NCBI RefSeq assembly: GCF_000002865.3 | Contig: NW_001865065.1 | Span: 422,812 to 486,811 of the forward strand | Source: Monosiga brevicollis MX1 | Lineage: Eukaryota > Opisthokonta > Choanoflagellata > Craspedida > Salpingoecidae | Length of the DNA: 64,000 nucleotides | Direction of reading: 5' to 3' | In this document: one piece after another, positions 20,201 through 27,737 of the stretch | Layout of the letters: each line of letters begins with the position of its first letter | Position numbering within the stretch: position 1 is the stretch's first letter | Program-made: the position numbers and the translations under genes | The notes under the pieces: model-generated | Seen by the model: only the letters and a program-made list of their open reading frames with translations | Databases searched by the model: none | What the model was told of the DNA's origin: nothing

Positions 20201-22009
20201 GTCCAGAATACTTTGTTCAACATTCTCTGCTTCCTGCGCCAGTCACTTGATCGTGACGTAGAAGGTGAGTGCGTCTTTTGGCTCACCAATGCCGTGGCAC
20301 AACAAGCGTAGCGCCCACCTATGGACGCCTGACGAACTCACTGCTGCTCCCGCAGTGGGCAAGCGTGTCCACGTGGCCTTGGCAGCCCGGGTCTTTATCA
20401 AACCCTCCTTTGTGGAAGACGTGGCTGACGAAATCACGTGTGGATCGGCTTTGAGCCTGCTCAAGCAGCTTTTGGCCACCCAGCAGGTAGGATCCTGCAG
20501 CAGTTGATGCTGGCGCATACGTGCGTGCCTGTGTACGTGTGTGTGTGCCGTCTTGCAGCCTGCTCAACACACCTTGCGAGGATAGGATGCGAAGAAGGAG
20601 CAGCTCAATGCTCGCTCCAGCGAAGGCTCCATCTCCATGCTGGGTCCAGACCGGTTACGCCGGGTATGTGGATCAGTCAACGTACCGCTTGCAGGCACTG
20701 GTCGAGGTACTTTGTGTTCACCATCACGCTACCTACCTTGGTGTTCCGTTTCCGCAGATTGGTGTGGCTGAGGACGATGCCAAAAACGAGCAAGTGGTGG
20801 CCCGAGCCCTTGAGTTGATGGTGAGGCTTTCTTCTTGGACATTCCTCTATTGTCTCTGTCTCTGTCTCTGTCTCTGTCTCTGTCTCTGTCTCTGTCTCTC
20901 TGTCTCTGTCTCTGTCTCTGTCTCTGGTCTCTGTCTCTGTCTCTGTCTCTGTCTCTGTCTCTGTCTGTGTCTCTGTCTGTGTGTCTGTGTGTCTGTGTGT
21001 CTGTGTGTCTGTGTGTCTGTGTGTCTGTGTGTCTGTGTGTCTGTGTGTCTGTGTGTCTGTGTGTGTGGGGGCGGGTGTACCTTTTTCTCTTTCTTTTTAC
21101 TTTCCCCTTTCTTCGAGCTCACGTCTCTTGTACTTGCAGGCGGACACCAGCGAGCAGATTGTCCGCATCACCCAGTCCTCGACCGAATGCCTTCTATACA
21201 TGCTATGGCGTCACCTCGACTTTTATCTGAACAGTCAGCGTGCCCATCAAGTAGGTCTAGCGTTTAACTTTGCAGCTTGAACGGCCAAGATACGGTCTTT
21301 GCTTTCTCTCGGTCTGGGTCGGATTGCTTTTTCTCGCCCTCACTTTCCTACCTTGTCACGCAGACTTCCACGTTCCAACCTCAGCGAAAAATTCGAACGC
21401 TGGAAGGTAAAGATTGCCGCCTGCTAACACCACTCTGCTATTTGTTGCTGCTATTTGTTGCGCCTGTTTGTCGTGCAATGTGGGCACGCTCTACGCTCAC
21501 TTCAGCTCTGCTCCAATGGCTCATTTATTAGCTGGGATTGTGGGGGCACCTCTTCATCACAATTCTGATATGAGCGATATGCGTGAGGACCCTTCGCTCT
21601 CAGCACCGGTATGTTTTTTTTTACCCCTGAGTTTCTCAAAGACCCCCGGACCGATGCATCGCCTTACTATGATGCCCAAATCTTATTGATTCCTTGTGTT
21701 TGGGGCCCTAAGCATGCTTTGACCACCGAAGAACTCAAAGTCTTCCAGGACGAGGTACAGAAGGTGTCGGCTTTGCGGTCCAATGCCGATAGCTTGCTGT
21801 CCAAGCTCGTTGCACGAGAAAAGGTGTGTCTCCTGGCAGTTGGCTGCCTGTCTTTCTGGAGTCTCGTATTGAGCCGCCGCTGACGTCAAATCGTGGCCGT
21901 TGGATAGGAATTATTGGTCGAACAAAAGTTTCAGCATGGCGTTGCTTTGACCCTGATCAAGCCCATTGAGCGACGCATTCGCTCTCTGGTGGATGGTTTG
22001 AATGCCTAA
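14249..22009 (+). CDS. NUP205: Nup205/Nup192-type inner-ring nucleoporin, 16 exons
   Basis: Large alpha-solenoid scaffold nucleoporin of the pore inner ring, partner of Nup93 and Nup35 in the known complex. Exons: 14249-14383, 14509-17019, 17118-17240, 17423-19510, 19646-19764, 19917-19964, 20137-20264, 20356-20486, 20586-20663, 20695-20706, 20758-20820, 21140-21254, 21364-21406, 21506-21608, 21749-21823 and 21908-22009. They give about 1957 residues, against about 2012 in human NUP205. The N-terminal block ([17 protein letters not shown], then [20 protein letters not shown]) follows the NUP205 pattern; the rest is helical and divergent. Two exons exceed 2 kb, and exon 10 is a 12-nt microexon (ALVE). 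The intron at 19511-19645 is 135 nt with no stop, so in-frame retention is possible. The exon 12/13/14 joints depend on a GTCTAG donor at 21255. The function rests on family similarity and length; no catalytic motif is expected. Confidence 0.85.
17270..17352 (+). repeat. T-rich tract in Nup205 intron 3
   Basis: Poly-T broken by single G and C residues, inside the intron between 17240 and 17423. It may act as an extended polypyrimidine tract. Confidence 0.85.
20848..21070 (+). repeat. TCTGTC / TGTGTC repeats in Nup205 intron 11
   Basis: About 20 TCTGTC-type hexamers pass gradually into TGTGTC octamer-like units, filling most of the 319-nt intron between 20820 and 21140. The change of unit along the array is visible directly. 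Confidence 0.95.
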
Positions 22010-22228
22010 GAGTCGACCGCATGGCAGATACAATGAAGACTCTCTTCTGATGGTCAGGCGATGGAGTAGTTGTTGTGGCACCCTGATTGGAAGCACGATG
22101 TGAATTGACATAAGGATGATGACACTTGTGTCAACTGATTGATTATCACTTCTCTTGCCACATCATGGTTGTGTGCGTGCTCCGCGGCACCTCAAGAGGC
22201 GCGTGTAAAATTGCAGTGACAAAGCAAG

Positions 22229-25200
22229 CTATGCACGCGGGAGGCCATTGACAAAAGCGACTGGCCACCAGCTCATGGTTGGCAAAATTTGTTCGAGGTC
22301 GGCGAGACTGCAGGCTTTGGTGGCCCGGTTGTTCACAAAGTATTCGTTGCCCTCGACAGACCATCTCACGTGGTGGTGAGTGAGCTTGCCACGGTGAACA
22401 ATGCTGAGCACCATGTCCTTCTTGTATGGGCGAAATAAAAATGTGCCATCCCGCATGTTTGACTTGAATTTTTCTGGCGCGCGCGTGTGGCAAAGCAACG
22501 AGGTCGGGATGAGCAAGACGGGTTCAGATGCACCCTCCGGAATCAAACGTTGCCCTCTGTACCAATCTCTCGAAGAAAAGCAGAAACTCACCTAGGGCTT
22601 GCTCACGATCCAGTTGGTGAAAAAAAGGGTAATCTGAGGCATTTGCAGACGTGGCAGATTCAGTCTCCGCTTTGTTGCTGGAGGAGGCGGCCTGTAAAGG
22701 CTCGTAGTGTGGCTGATCTGACGTGAGCACCGGTTGCTCATAGCGCGGATCATCCACTGGCTCGTACATACTGTCGTCTGTGGCTGCCACAACGGTCGGA
22801 TCTTTGGAGTCGGTGACGGTGGAGACTGGCGATACCGGGGCACCGTAAACGTTGGTCACAGCCCTGTTATCCTGTGCGTCAGTTGCGTCTGCGCTGCCGT
22901 AGACTGGCTCTGTTTGAGGCGGCGGCAAAGCCTCCCCATAAGTGACGTCTTCTGCCTCAACGTTCACGTCCTCGTAAGCAGGCATGGAAGAACGGACAGA
23001 TGTGGTGTCATTGCCGTAAACTGGCTCTGTTTCGCGCGGTAAAGCCTCCCCATAGGTATTATCCGCTGTCAAACTCATTTCTTCGTAAGCAGCAGAAGGC
23101 GAAGGGACTGACTCGGCATTGCCATACACTAGATCTACGGAAACACCATCGTCAATCTCCTCGGCAGCGGCAGAGGATGTTTGCGTTGCTGTCACTGCCA
23201 GGCTAGCATCAGGCTGACCCTGACCCGGCGTATTGACGTATGTGTGCTCCGCTGGCTTAGCTGTAACGCTGTGCAAGTTCATGTAGGTGTGATCGCTCTC
23301 GTGGATGTTGGCCTGAATGACACCGGCCGACCTAGGCGTCGATGCCTCCGCTGTGCGCGGGGTCAAAGCTGGTGGAGCAACAATGTTCTGCGTCATTGCC
23401 GAAGTTTTACCAAACAATGGCTTGGCCGGTTGTGGAGAAGCTCCAGCCGATGGCTAAAGTTCAGTGATCGAGACCTGGGTGAGTATACACGCCAAGTTGC
23501 TGTCAGAAGCAAAAAGCATTCTTGATAGTTGTACCTGATTGTACAGCTGTTGGCCCGGGATGGCAGTTGTTGGAGGCAAGGGAGAAAAAAAAGCCGCGTC
23601 GATATACGGTTCAAAGGATGAATAGTCAGTGAGCCCGGCACGATACCAAAGTTGCATTCCAGCAACGCCTGATTGGACCTGCTCAGATAGTCTTACCCTA
23701 CGACCCAACTTGGGTGTCCCCTGGGCCAGGCTATCTTTGAAATACGCGTCGTTGCTCTCCGCACGTTTGGCCAGCTGTTCCAATTCCGTGGCCACATCGG
23801 TCGTTCCCACGCTCCGTCGGAAGTTGGGCTTTAACAAGGCTTGTGCCCTAACAGTATGATAACCCGGTCGAGGCAGACCAGAGTTAAGAGAGAACACCTG
23901 ATCATGATATCTCAACGTTTGTTAGTGTGCTCGGAAAGGGTCGAGCAGAGGCGAGCGCAGAAGAACTTGCGTGAGCGTTGCAGGCTCGGGTCGAGGACGC
24001 GAATTGATTTTGGGTTGCGACCGACCAGCAGCGAAAAGGCGGGCCACAGACTGGAGGCAAACCAGGTGCACAGGCACGCCGGGCAAGCGAGTGAGAGAAC
24101 CATTTGACAGGTGCAAAAATTAATCAAGAAAATAGGGGCGTCGAACGCAATAGGCTCGCATACACAACTTTCGGCAAATTATGATCTTTGCCATACCGCA
24201 GGTACAGCGTTTTGCTCCACGATGACCACCGAAGCCAGGCTTTGCAAGGACTGGTTTTGCTGTTGCATCCATTGCAGGGCTTTCAGAACGAGGCGACTAC
24301 TAGCCACCTCGGGCAGCGCCTGGTTGCCACGCCATAGCACGATGGCATTGTCCGCAACTATTCGAGGCGTAGTTTGCATTGTGAATCAGTGGGACGGCAT
24401 CATGCCCCGCAGAAGGAAATGGATCTCGAATACCCACAGGCAAGCACGATGTGACCAGGGCCCAGCACTGTAGACGTGAACGGCAGGACAGCACCCTGCT
24501 CTTGCACAAAGTTCAAGGCCTCGATGGACGCTGGTAAACGGCACGTCCACAACTCGCTTGGAGGGATTGCGGGTGCAACGGCCTCAGACACTTGATCCTC
24601 AGACTCGCCAAGCGCCGTAAAAAACGAAGTGGCAAGCTCCAGACCTACCGCCAGTCTCGCTGTTCGTGAGACAGTATGGACTCGCCGTTTACGGACGAGA
24701 TGACGGTCGAGATGACGGTCGAGCCCGTCACAGGATATGAATGTCAGCACATCACAGCCTACTCACCTGCGGTGATGTACTCGAGTGCCCCGCGGGTGCG
24801 GCGATGGTGTGCCAAGAGCTTGCAAAGCCGCTCGGCCTGTCATTTGCGGCATGCAATCACTCGTTCGTGAGGCAAGTCAAATTCGCTAGAAAGTTTCTGG
24901 TCCCTCTTACCAAAAGTTTGTCTTTGTTCGGCACGTCGCGCCCTTGCCACGCCCAAAGGCGATCCCCAACGTTGAGAATGAAGATGCCATTCTGGTGCAT
25001 TTGAGCTGCTTGCGCGGGAATCTCACGGCCCACAGGTGGGCTGTTCTTGGACCCATTGCGCTGGATATGTACGGCGACCAAGCAGGGGGTCGCCTTGTCG
25101 CTGGTGGAGGGCCCCGTAGTACCCGGATCAAGACCATTCAACACAAGCAGCTGCCCAAACAAGCTCACAAAGTGGGGCGACTCGGTGCCTTGAATCTCGA

Positions 25201-25738
25201 AATGCAGTGCCGGTGTTTCACCAGTGTGCTCACACCAGGCGATGAGGTCACTCCAGAAGATGCCTGACGCAAGAAGATTGGGCATGTTTCACAACGAGCG
25301 CCTGAGAGAATGCTGAGGGACAAGAACAAAAGGGGAGAGACCAGAACCTCCATGCAATCTCATTGAGATGCGTCCAGCTCCGTATCGCACGACCAAGGTG
25401 GCGTGCCCGTTTGGAGTTTGCAGAGCACAATCGGGGGTCACCTGGTTGAGGCAGCACGTACCGGCATACTGCATATCCTCCAGTTCGGCATCGGCTCCAA
25501 ACCATATAGCTACGCGAGGCACGCGACTCTTGACGTGCACGAGGTAGACGCCGCGGGAGTAGAAGATGCCAGCGCTCACTGGTGCTTGCAACTGCAGGGC
25601 ATGGTGACGGACTTGCCACACAGTGATAGTCGCACCCGCCTTGGCTCCAGCGTCGAACTGTGGCGTCAAGGGATGAGCATGAATGTCCAACCACGGATCG
25701 CGTCAAGGATTGAATACATGGTCAACGTGCACGGGCAT
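22229..25738 (-). CDS. Gelsolin-repeat protein with phosphotyrosine array and SH2 domain, 10 exons
   Basis: Exons in transcript order: 25738-25718, 25657-25348, 25263-24911, 24836-24767, 24644-24438, 24357-24197, 24050-23967, 23897-23535, 23453-22592 and 22473-22229. They join in frame to 891 residues. N-terminal third: gelsolin-like repeats. The first holds ITVWQVRHHALQL, SAGIFYSRGVYLVHVKS, IWFGADAELEDMQYAG and HFEIQGTESPHFVSLF; the second holds GIFILNVGDRLWAWQGRD. A third, weaker one holds GPGHIVLAFADNAIVLWRGN. Residues about 524-800 contain 13 spaced tyrosines: YMNL, YVN, YEEM, YEDV and repeated VYGN and TYGEAL. The C-terminus is an SH2 domain: FFHQLDREQALEKFK, then GTFLFRPYKKD with the phosphate-binding arginine, then GKLTHHHVRW. 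In known families gelsolin repeats bind and sever actin, and SH2 binds phosphotyrosine. The combined role, tyrosine-kinase-controlled actin remodelling, is inference. The tiny first exon is the least certain; the intron before 23897 shows a CTAAC branch-point-like site. Confidence 0.85.
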
Positions 25739-26638
<900 letters not shown>

Positions 26639-27737
26639 ATGAGTCAAACCCAAACAGAGGAGCGTGTGGATGCCACCGTCGAAACCAAGGGAGTGGAGCA
26701 CCATGATCAGGAGCATCAGAACCTCAGCTTGGCCCTGCGCGCCATGGCTGGTGAGTGAAACTGTGCCCACCATTTGACAAGGCTCGTCCAGCTTATCGGG
26801 ACATGTGCCTGCAATCGTTGACGCAATCCCTCCATGCCGTGCACCGACTGCTTCTTGTGTTTTTTTTTTTTTTTTTTCAACCAACGCCGCAGGTCCAGTC
26901 ATGACCAATCTCTCTGTCGGTGGCGTCTCGGGCTATGTGAGTGTCCTGATCCATTCCGCTGTACACCCAGGGCAGGAGGCCTCGCACATGCTTCCTCACC
27001 TCAACCTCAACGCGTGCGGGCCGTAGTGCGCTGGCATGGCTGTAAAAAAGGTCAGCAAGGCTGCTGCCAGTGCTGTAGGCGTGGCCTTTTTGACCCTGCA
27101 GCTTTTAGGTACGCGTATATACCCGGTGCTGGTGCTGGGCTGGCTCGTGTTCTGCCCCACCACCATCTCATGTCAAACGCCCACTCGTTGCGTGCCCTCC
27201 CCTGAAGCCTACAATGGCTTTATCACAGTGCATTGGTAGGTTACTACGTGCCTGTACTTCTTTCGCCTCGCCGCCATCCATCTTCACCCATTGTCTTGGT
27301 ATGCTGCCTGGCAATACTGACCATGGTGCCAACCTTACCTAATGTGCAGGGACAGGATTGAGGCGAAGATCAAGTCGATCTTTGACAAGGACGGTGATGG
27401 CAAGATTGACCCCGAGTTTTGGCAGCAGCAGGTGGGGCTCAGCATCGCTCAACACCAGATAGCAAAATGAGCTTATTGCAGACAGCTGGCTGTCCTGTTG
27501 CATCATCTCACTCCCTTGGCTCCATTGACGTAGCTGGAGAAGGTCATGACATATCAGCTCCCTGCCTCATTCACGGGCTTTGGCATCGGATTTGGTCTGG
27601 GCCTGCGGTATGATTGCCCACTTGTCCACTCATCTTATGGATACATGGATGAATTTAAACACTCGCACCTAAATCCCGCACTCACTGGCACTATAACCGT
27701 CCAATGTTGCTGCGTGGACGCCCATAGCTACTCGTGA
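26639..27737 (+). CDS. FUN14-domain (FUNDC1-like) membrane protein, 7 exons
   Basis: FUN14 proteins are small proteins of the mitochondrial outer membrane; animal FUNDC1 is a mitophagy receptor. Exons 26639-26750, 26893-26936, 27027-27108, 27208-27235, 27350-27431, 27534-27607 and 27728-27737 give 143 residues. The core matches the family in order: NLSVGGVSGYCAGMAVKKVS, AAASAVGVAFLTLQLL, YNGFITVHWDRIEAKIK, and a C-terminal glycine-rich membrane segment FGIGFGLGLR. The soluble loop holds DKDGDGKIDPEF, which resembles an EF-hand calcium loop except for F at position 12. No YxxL-type LC3-interacting motif is seen near the N-terminus, so a mitophagy role is unproven. The last exon is 10 nt (RYS-stop in frame); reading through its donor would add about 40 unrelated residues instead. 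Confidence 0.88.

What the first reader, a model, noticed from the sequence alone, without database searches (positions are those of the whole stretch)
22229..25738. Gelsolin repeats, 13-tyrosine array and SH2 domain in one protein
Seen: about three gelsolin-like repeats, then evenly spaced tyrosines in motifs such as YMNL and YVN (Grb2-type), YEEM (PI3K-type) and repeated VYGN/TYGEAL, then an SH2 domain with FLFR arginine. Known: gelsolin repeats remodel actin; SH2 reads phosphotyrosine. I know of no animal protein with this order. Inference: a scaffold that couples tyrosine kinase signalling to actin, perhaps with internal SH2-phosphotyrosine locking.
Basis: partly seen in the sequence, partly recalled or inferred. 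Interest (0 to 1): 0.8.

Follow-up and report, generated by a model that had tools for sequence, protein, structure and literature searches.

The report
Gelsolin-SH2 scaffold with tyrosine array
A single-celled relative of animals carries a gene that appears to join an actin-protein module, a string of thirteen tyrosine switches and a phosphotyrosine reader in one protein, a predicted link between tyrosine-kinase signalling and the cell skeleton that still needs RNA and protein proof.

Summary
Largely real. On the minus strand, ten GT-AG exons (25738-22229) give 853 residues, not 891: two gelsolin repeats (PDB gelsolin 6.9e-15), an Ala/Ser/Pro/Thr-rich stretch with 13 tyrosines, and a C-terminal SH2 domain (Pfam 32.2 bits, cut-off 21). 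A third gelsolin repeat is uncertain: three tests negative, one positive. The organism is Monosiga brevicollis: both published MbAbl2 primers match exactly.

Best reading: a phosphotyrosine docking adaptor carried on a calcium-insensitive gelsolin module. Actin binding is inferred. One transcript is likely but unproven; exons 7-8 are uncertain. A new combination of known parts; the two 2008 M. brevicollis surveys could not be read.

The parts
25718..25738 (-). exon 1, start codon, MPVHVDH
   Evidence: frame, GTATTC donor, 60-nt intron; weakly determined
25462..25657 (-). exon 2, first half of gelsolin repeat 1
   Evidence: PDB and Pfam alignment; codon bias in frame 0.20 against -0.42/-0.32
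24911..25263 (-). exon 3, end of gelsolin repeat 1 and most of repeat 2
   Evidence: codon bias 0.06 against -0.37/-0.45
24767..24836 (-). exon 4, repeat 2 helix
24438..24644 (-). exon 5, end of repeat 2 and start of the third, gelsolin-like stretch (alternative acceptor at 24659 adds 5 residues)
24197..24357 (-). exon 6, third gelsolin-like stretch (ADNAIVLWRGNQA)
   Evidence: position; z 6.2 to repeat 2 of the genome's villin; other tests negative
23967..24050 (-). exon 7, uncertain
   Evidence: weak GTTCTT donor; codon bias 0.02 in frame but 0.18 in another frame; many alternative splice paths
23535..23897 (-). exon 8, linker with no Pfam family over cut-off; start uncertain
   Evidence: frame open from 23921 to the TAG at 23456-23454; codon bias 0.00 against -0.36/-0.61; Pfam scan
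22592..23453 (-). exon 9, Ala/Ser/Pro/Thr-rich tyrosine array and start of the SH2 domain
   Evidence: codon bias 0.17 against -0.48/-0.58
22704..23285 (-). 13 array tyrosines, residues 542-735
   Evidence: tandem duplication inside it
22895..23057 (-). tandem duplication around TYGEALP and EPVYG, 114-117 nt period (28 nt at 86%, 22 nt at 91%)
22229..22473 (-). exon 10, rest of the SH2 domain with FLFR arginine, THHH and WWPV, to the stop codon
   Evidence: Pfam SH2 23.9 bits on the open frame of this exon, 32.2 when spliced; PDB ZAP-70 1.4e-6; subfamily alignment

Best explanation
One gene of Monosiga brevicollis encodes a docking adaptor: an N-terminal gelsolin module (repeats 1 and 2, perhaps a degenerate third), a probably disordered tail of 13 tyrosines and a C-terminal SH2 domain. 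I propose that the gelsolin module, having lost calcium ligands, no longer severs actin on a calcium signal but holds the protein on actin or another cytoskeletal partner; that RTKB- and Src-type kinases phosphorylate the VYG/TYG array; that the protein's own SH2 domain binds the first phosphotyrosines of a receptor or of a neighbouring copy, bringing the array to the kinase so that it is phosphorylated processively; and that the phosphorylated array then recruits SH2 partners to the cytoskeleton. Shown: domains, frame, lost ligands, array and motif statistics, SH2 arginine. Inferred: disorder, actin binding, phosphorylation, processivity, one transcript.
For: Gelsolin homology: PDB gelsolin 6.9e-15 for repeats 1-2, villin 3e-15 for the whole N-terminal part; repeat 1 is closest to repeat 1 and repeat 2 to repeat 2 of the same genome's villin (z 11.0 and 12.9). 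SH2 over Pfam cut-off with the FLVR-type arginine, invariant in 7 of 7 aligned SH2 sequences. Array: 13 Tyr in 274 residues, G at +1 in 6 against 0.59 expected (0 of 5000 shuffles); five acidic-[VT]-Y-G sites among 13 Tyr against 0.47 expected (0 of 10000 shuffles), and 5 among 89 Tyr in seven other stretches of the genome (motif chosen after seeing the sites). In this organism peptides SEEVYGAVV and AEEVYEAIA (flanked by assay tags) were tested as RTKB2 substrates and found to be so, an RM2 domain is phosphorylated by RTKB2 or MbSrc1, and the phosphorylated domain binds the MbSrc1 SH2 domain (PMC3584944, passages). Lost Asp ligand: G, G, H where 5 of 5 complete repeats of the genome's villin have Asp, as do the gelsolin repeats aligned to repeats 1 and 2; D187N/Y prevents calcium binding in gelsolin repeat 2 (PMC13013752, passages).
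Against: No RNA, protein or relative in another species was available, so nothing proves that both halves share a transcript; 1240 stop-free splice paths can join exon 6 to exon 9, so frame continuity is weak evidence. Exon 7 shows more codon bias in another frame, and intron 5 scores 0.10 in one frame, as high as an exon. The third repeat is unsettled. The calcium Asp is also missing (Ala) in one of the 8 canonical-looking repeats of alignment A1, from L066, so its loss is not unique to this gene. The Glu ligand is conservatively Asp in repeats 1 and 2, so weak calcium binding is not excluded. The lost residues may mean that actin is not bound at all. The array counts are not independent, since part of it is a tandem duplication. 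Vertebrate gelsolin aligns best through its repeats 4-5, not 1-2.
Confidence: 0.5

Rival explanations
1. Internal lock: the SH2 domain binds a phosphotyrosine of its own array, folding the protein so that the gelsolin module is hidden until dephosphorylated or out-competed.
For: The last array tyrosine (735) is about 24 residues from the SH2 domain, the others up to about 220; the FLVR-type arginine is kept.
Against: No evidence for intramolecular preference; no Trp where I place the EF loop from memory, so its own YxN sites are not obvious ligands; close linkage also favours processive phosphorylation.
Confidence: 0.15
2. The gelsolin module is a retired fold: it no longer binds actin and serves only as an interaction platform, so the protein is an ordinary SH2/tyrosine docking adaptor.
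For: All three Asp calcium ligands, the LDDY of gelsolin repeat 1 (aligned to LIAW), GGVASGF and KGRR are missing; the third repeat is barely recognisable.
Against: Repeats 1 and 2 are still recognised with E about 1e-14, which suggests that the fold is under constraint.
Confidence: 0.2
3. Two genes read as one: a short gelsolin protein ending at or before the TAG at 23456-23454, and a separate tyrosine-SH2 adaptor starting at the ATG (23396) that begins MTQNIV.
For: An in-frame stop lies just before exon 9 if intron 8 is kept; exons 7-8 are weakly coding, and splice joins are arbitrary.
Against: It would leave under 60 nt between two same-strand coding regions; exon 8 keeps the expected frame preference (0.00 against -0.36/-0.61), and so does the short stretch of exon 9 before MTQ (-0.11 against -0.45/-0.24); intron 8 is GT-AG with no coding bias.
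Confidence: 0.13

Closest known systems
Gelsolin/villin superfamily (gelsolin, villin, adseverin, CapG, severin/fragmin)
   Same: Two collinear gelsolin repeats at the N terminus, closest to repeats 1 and 2 of the genome's villin
   Different: Asp calcium ligands, GGVASGF and KGRR signatures lost; no villin headpiece at this locus; tyrosine array and SH2 domain added
SLP-76/BLNK and SHB-type adaptors (recalled)
   Same: Tyrosine motifs followed by a C-terminal SH2 domain; same working principle
   Different: As recalled, those have no gelsolin repeats; the nearest SH2 relatives found here are other M. brevicollis proteins
Tensins (recalled)
   Same: An SH2 domain and an actin-linked region in one protein
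   Different: No gelsolin repeats in tensins (recalled); Pfam found no PTB or phosphatase-like domain here
M. brevicollis RTKB2 RM2 tail (PMC3584944, passages)
   Same: Repeated acidic-V-Y-G/E sites, shown there to be phosphorylated and to bind an SH2 domain
   Different: There they sit in a receptor tail; here in a protein with its own SH2 domain. RM2 homology itself was not tested
M. brevicollis GKxTHH SH2 proteins (e.g. loci L055, L056)
   Same: SH2 subfamily; L056 also carries YGN and YGT and, in a downstream frame, AYGEAV
   Different: No gelsolin hit within 60 kb of the listed SH2 hits

Membership tests
Gelsolin/villin superfamily | gelsolin repeats recognised above curated cut-off | tested here: met
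   Pfam Gelsolin 33.4 bits on the N-terminal part, cut-off 21, two stretches; PDB 6.9e-15
Gelsolin/villin superfamily | three or six repeats | tested here: inconclusive
   third repeat: negative; z 6.2; leaving it out raises gelsolin by 4.4 bits and lowers villin by 4.4
Gelsolin/villin superfamily | calcium ligands of the repeat (Asp187 and Glu209 positions of gelsolin repeat 2) | tested here: not met
   Asp to G, G, H; Glu to D, D, V (ligand roles from PMC13013752 passages). Not absolute for the family: the L066 repeat has Ala at the Asp position
Gelsolin/villin superfamily | actin binding, capping or severing | not testable with these tools
   needs purified protein
Villin subfamily | C-terminal headpiece | tested here: not met
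   4 headpiece hits in the genome, none at this locus
SH2 domain | Pfam SH2 over cut-off and arginine of the FLVR motif | tested here: met
   32.2 bits; arginine invariant in the alignment of 7 SH2 sequences
SH2 domain | binds phosphotyrosine | not testable with these tools
   needs binding assay
Grb2-type SH2 | Trp of the EF loop | tested here: inconclusive
   no Trp in YFVNNRATKACSLADL (sequence), but the loop was placed from memory
SLP-76/SHB-type adaptor | tyrosine motifs plus C-terminal SH2 | tested here: met
   the definition itself is recalled
SLP-76/SHB-type adaptor | sequence kinship of SH2 with SLP-76 or SHB | tested here: inconclusive
   24 PDB sequences matched at E up to 1, none named SLP-76 or SHB; whether those are in the library was not checked

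The most novel reading that the evidence does not exclude
A gelsolin in which the calcium latch has been traded for a phosphotyrosine latch: kinase phosphorylation of the array and SH2 engagement, instead of calcium, open or place the actin-binding module, making it a tyrosine-kinase-gated actin regulator with no animal counterpart known to me.
Probability: 0.17. Interest if true: 0.75.

Novelty: new variant of a known kind. Interest (0 to 1): 0.5.

Why it matters
M. brevicollis is reported to have tyrosine kinases and SH2 domains in numbers comparable to or greater than mammals (PMC3507883, passages), but how they reach cell behaviour is, to my knowledge, largely open. A protein that physically joins the tyrosine-phosphorylation vocabulary shown for RTKB2/MbSrc1 to a gelsolin module would make the question 'does tyrosine-kinase signalling control actin in choanoflagellates?' directly testable with one gene. 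If ordinary, it is one more shuffled SH2 adaptor.

Tried and rejected
Third gelsolin repeat by separate PDB search, hhalign and shuffled profile search: negative; the alignment to the villin's repeat 2 is positive, so I call it uncertain. The profile is insensitive: solid repeat 1 scores 3.1 bits in it and the best shuffle 4.6.

Another gelsolin-SH2 gene in the genome: none of 17 gelsolin hits lies within 60 kb of any of the 114 listed SH2 hits (by inspection). Neither scan rings on this gene itself, so equally divergent copies could be missed. Searches with its own protein found, besides itself, only villins, one gelsolin-like exon (C44) and SH2 exons.

PDB identity as a way to name the organism failed (cut at 1e-100: seven EGFR or ABL1 entries); the published primers did it. 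A first codon-bias run used one villin training stretch in the wrong frame; only, with it corrected, is used. Relatives in other choanoflagellates could not be sought: no eukaryote collection other than this genome is held.

Literature on a gelsolin-SH2 pairing: searches (2 papers; 30 of 58 listed; 4; 9 of 10 listed; 15 of 282 listed; 3; 25 of 28 listed) showed nothing that by title or opening abstract describes one. Passages of PMC4758236 and PMC3507883 do not; PMC6651758, PMC1420674 and PMC8584932, which hold the words, were not opened. The two 2008 M. brevicollis surveys (Manning, Pincus; recalled, Manning also cited in PMC3507883) were not read, so I do not claim that the architecture is unpublished. 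Structure prediction was not used, because a spliced product is not a letter-for-letter translation of the window. For alignment A1 I used part of the L063 and L066 frames; L064 gave no usable repeat. Six GKxTHH stretches were found in the loci held; five were aligned.

Full report
What is there. The minus strand between 25738 and 22229 holds a gene that can be spliced with nine GT-AG introns of 60-198 nt into ten exons and 853 residues (an alternative acceptor at 24659 adds five). Codon bias, trained on six long open frames of the same genome, favours the chosen frame in 9 of 10 exons; exon 7 prefers another frame, exons 8 and 10 score near zero while still best in the chosen frame, and intron 5 scores 0.10 in one frame. 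By my reading of the open frames the gene lies between a plus-strand gene ending near 22010 and a plus-strand FUN14 gene starting at 26639.

Which organism. Both cloning primers published for M. brevicollis MbAbl2 (PMC4474922, passages) occur exactly once each, about 2.5 kb apart and facing each other, on contig C47, around an Abl-like kinase. The genome has at least 114 SH2 exon matches and 169 matches to PF07714, which also covers Ser/Thr kinases.

Gelsolin part. Pfam finds Gelsolin at 33.4 bits on the N-terminal part (cut-off 21); phmmer against the PDB finds villin at 3e-15 and gelsolin at 1.3e-13. With repeats 1 and 2 only, gelsolin improves to 6.9e-15 (53.9 to 58.3 bits), adseverin changes from 42.6 to 43.7 bits, and villin drops from 59.3 to 54.9 bits, so the third stretch adds little. 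Alone it has no significant PDB hit, hhalign gives 0.4% (repeat 2 gives 89.6%), and 25 of 1000 shuffles, of which 801 were scored, reach its profile score; that profile is insensitive, giving solid repeat 1 only 3.1 bits. Compared with one villin of the same genome, repeat 1 is closest to its repeat 1 (z 11.0), repeat 2 to its repeat 2 (z 12.9), and the third stretch to its repeat 2 (z 6.2), with about zero to repeat 3. So two repeats are firm and a third is possible. Vertebrate gelsolin aligns best through repeats 4-5, adseverin and CapG through their first two.

Lost calcium site. In gelsolin repeat 2 calcium is held by G186, D187, E209 and D259, and D187N/Y prevents binding (PMC13013752, passages). 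At the Asp position 5 of 5 complete repeats of the villin have Asp; the three repeats here have G, G and H. At the Glu position they have D, D and V (the PDB alignments of repeats 1 and 2 agree). The loss is not unique: of the 8 repeats in alignment A1, 7 have Asp and one, from L066, has Ala. The GGV(A)SGF and VKGRRK stretches of the villins are replaced by unrelated sequence, and the LDDY of gelsolin repeat 1 is aligned to LIAW. Calcium-gated severing is therefore unlikely; plain actin binding is open.

Array. Thirteen tyrosines stand in 274 residues (4.7% against 2.0% in the training proteins, binomial P 0.004; region chosen after the fact), more evenly spaced than chance (P 0.005). G follows Tyr in 6 of 13 (shuffle mean 0.59, 0 of 5000), Asn stands at +2 in 4 (P 0.0006), E at +1 in 5 (P 0.0014), and an acidic residue at -4 to -1 in 10 (P 0.03). 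A tandem duplication with period 114-117 nt made part of it, so these counts are not independent events. Five sites have an acidic residue at -4 to -2, V or T at -1 and G at +1; the motif class counted expects 0.47 (0 of 10000 shuffles reach 5) and occurs at 5 of 89 tyrosines in seven other stretches of the genome (motif defined after seeing the sites). They resemble peptides from the M. brevicollis receptor RTKB2 (SEEVYGAVV, AEEVYEAIA), reported as RTKB2 substrates; an RM2 domain is phosphorylated by RTKB2 or MbSrc1 and then binds the MbSrc1 SH2 domain (PMC3584944, passages).

SH2 part. Spliced, it scores 32.2 bits in Pfam and finds ZAP-70 at 1.4e-6. It keeps the FLVR-type arginine, considered key to phosphotyrosine recognition (PMC7530234, passages), and a His of THHH that is invariant in the alignment. 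Five relatives in the genome, 26-34% identical, share GKxTHH; three of the five also share the C-terminal WPV. One of these genes (L056) bears YGN and YGT sites and, in a downstream frame whose joining I did not model, AYGEAV. This looks like a local family of docking proteins, of which this one acquired gelsolin repeats. No other gelsolin hit lies within 60 kb of a listed SH2 hit, with the caveat that those scans also miss this gene.

One gene or two. The frame can be carried from exon 6 to exon 9 by 1240 stop-free paths with one or two introns, so continuity of frame proves little; exon 8 keeps the expected frame preference, and two separate genes would have under 60 nt between coding regions. 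I put about 85% on one transcript (judgement).

How it works. Best reading: a docking adaptor kept near the cytoskeleton by a calcium-insensitive gelsolin module, phosphorylated on its array by Src- or RTKB-type kinases with help from its own SH2 domain, and recruiting SH2 partners. Domain content, lost ligands and motif statistics are shown; disorder, actin binding, phosphorylation and processivity are inferred.

Novelty. The parts are known; the combination is not one that I know from animals, and searches listed no paper whose title or opening abstract describes it. The genome has been public since 2008 (recalled), and the two surveys of that year could not be read here, so the model may already be listed there.

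Noticed in passing
26639 to about 27610 (+): FUN14-family gene (Pfam 89.6 bits on a product that I joined by eye) with an EF-hand-like loop DKDGDGKIDPEF inside the FUN14 match; EF-hand scores are below cut-off.
   Followed up: partly
about 26054-26278; also about 20850-21067: A CT-rich simple repeat of some 220 bases between the divergent FUN14 and gelsolin-SH2 genes; a second CT/GT repeat of similar length lies in the plus-strand gene downstream.
   Followed up: no
G000:C24, loci L061 and L062: Two very similar villin genes with headpiece in opposite orientation about 65 kb apart, apparently an inverted duplication.
   Followed up: no
L056 3982-6929 (+): GKxTHH-type SH2 frame with a proline/glutamine-rich repeat, followed by a frame with YG-type tyrosines and a C-terminal CLVM that looks like a prenylation (CaaX) signal; the exon joins were not modelled.
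   Followed up: partly
L065 3603-6140 (+): Long N-terminal extension ahead of a gelsolin repeat and a headpiece in one frame, supervillin-like in order (resemblance recalled).
   Followed up: no
L066: Gelsolin-like frame of 575 aa in which one repeat has Ala at the calcium Asp position, so calcium-ligand loss occurs elsewhere in this genome too.
   Followed up: no
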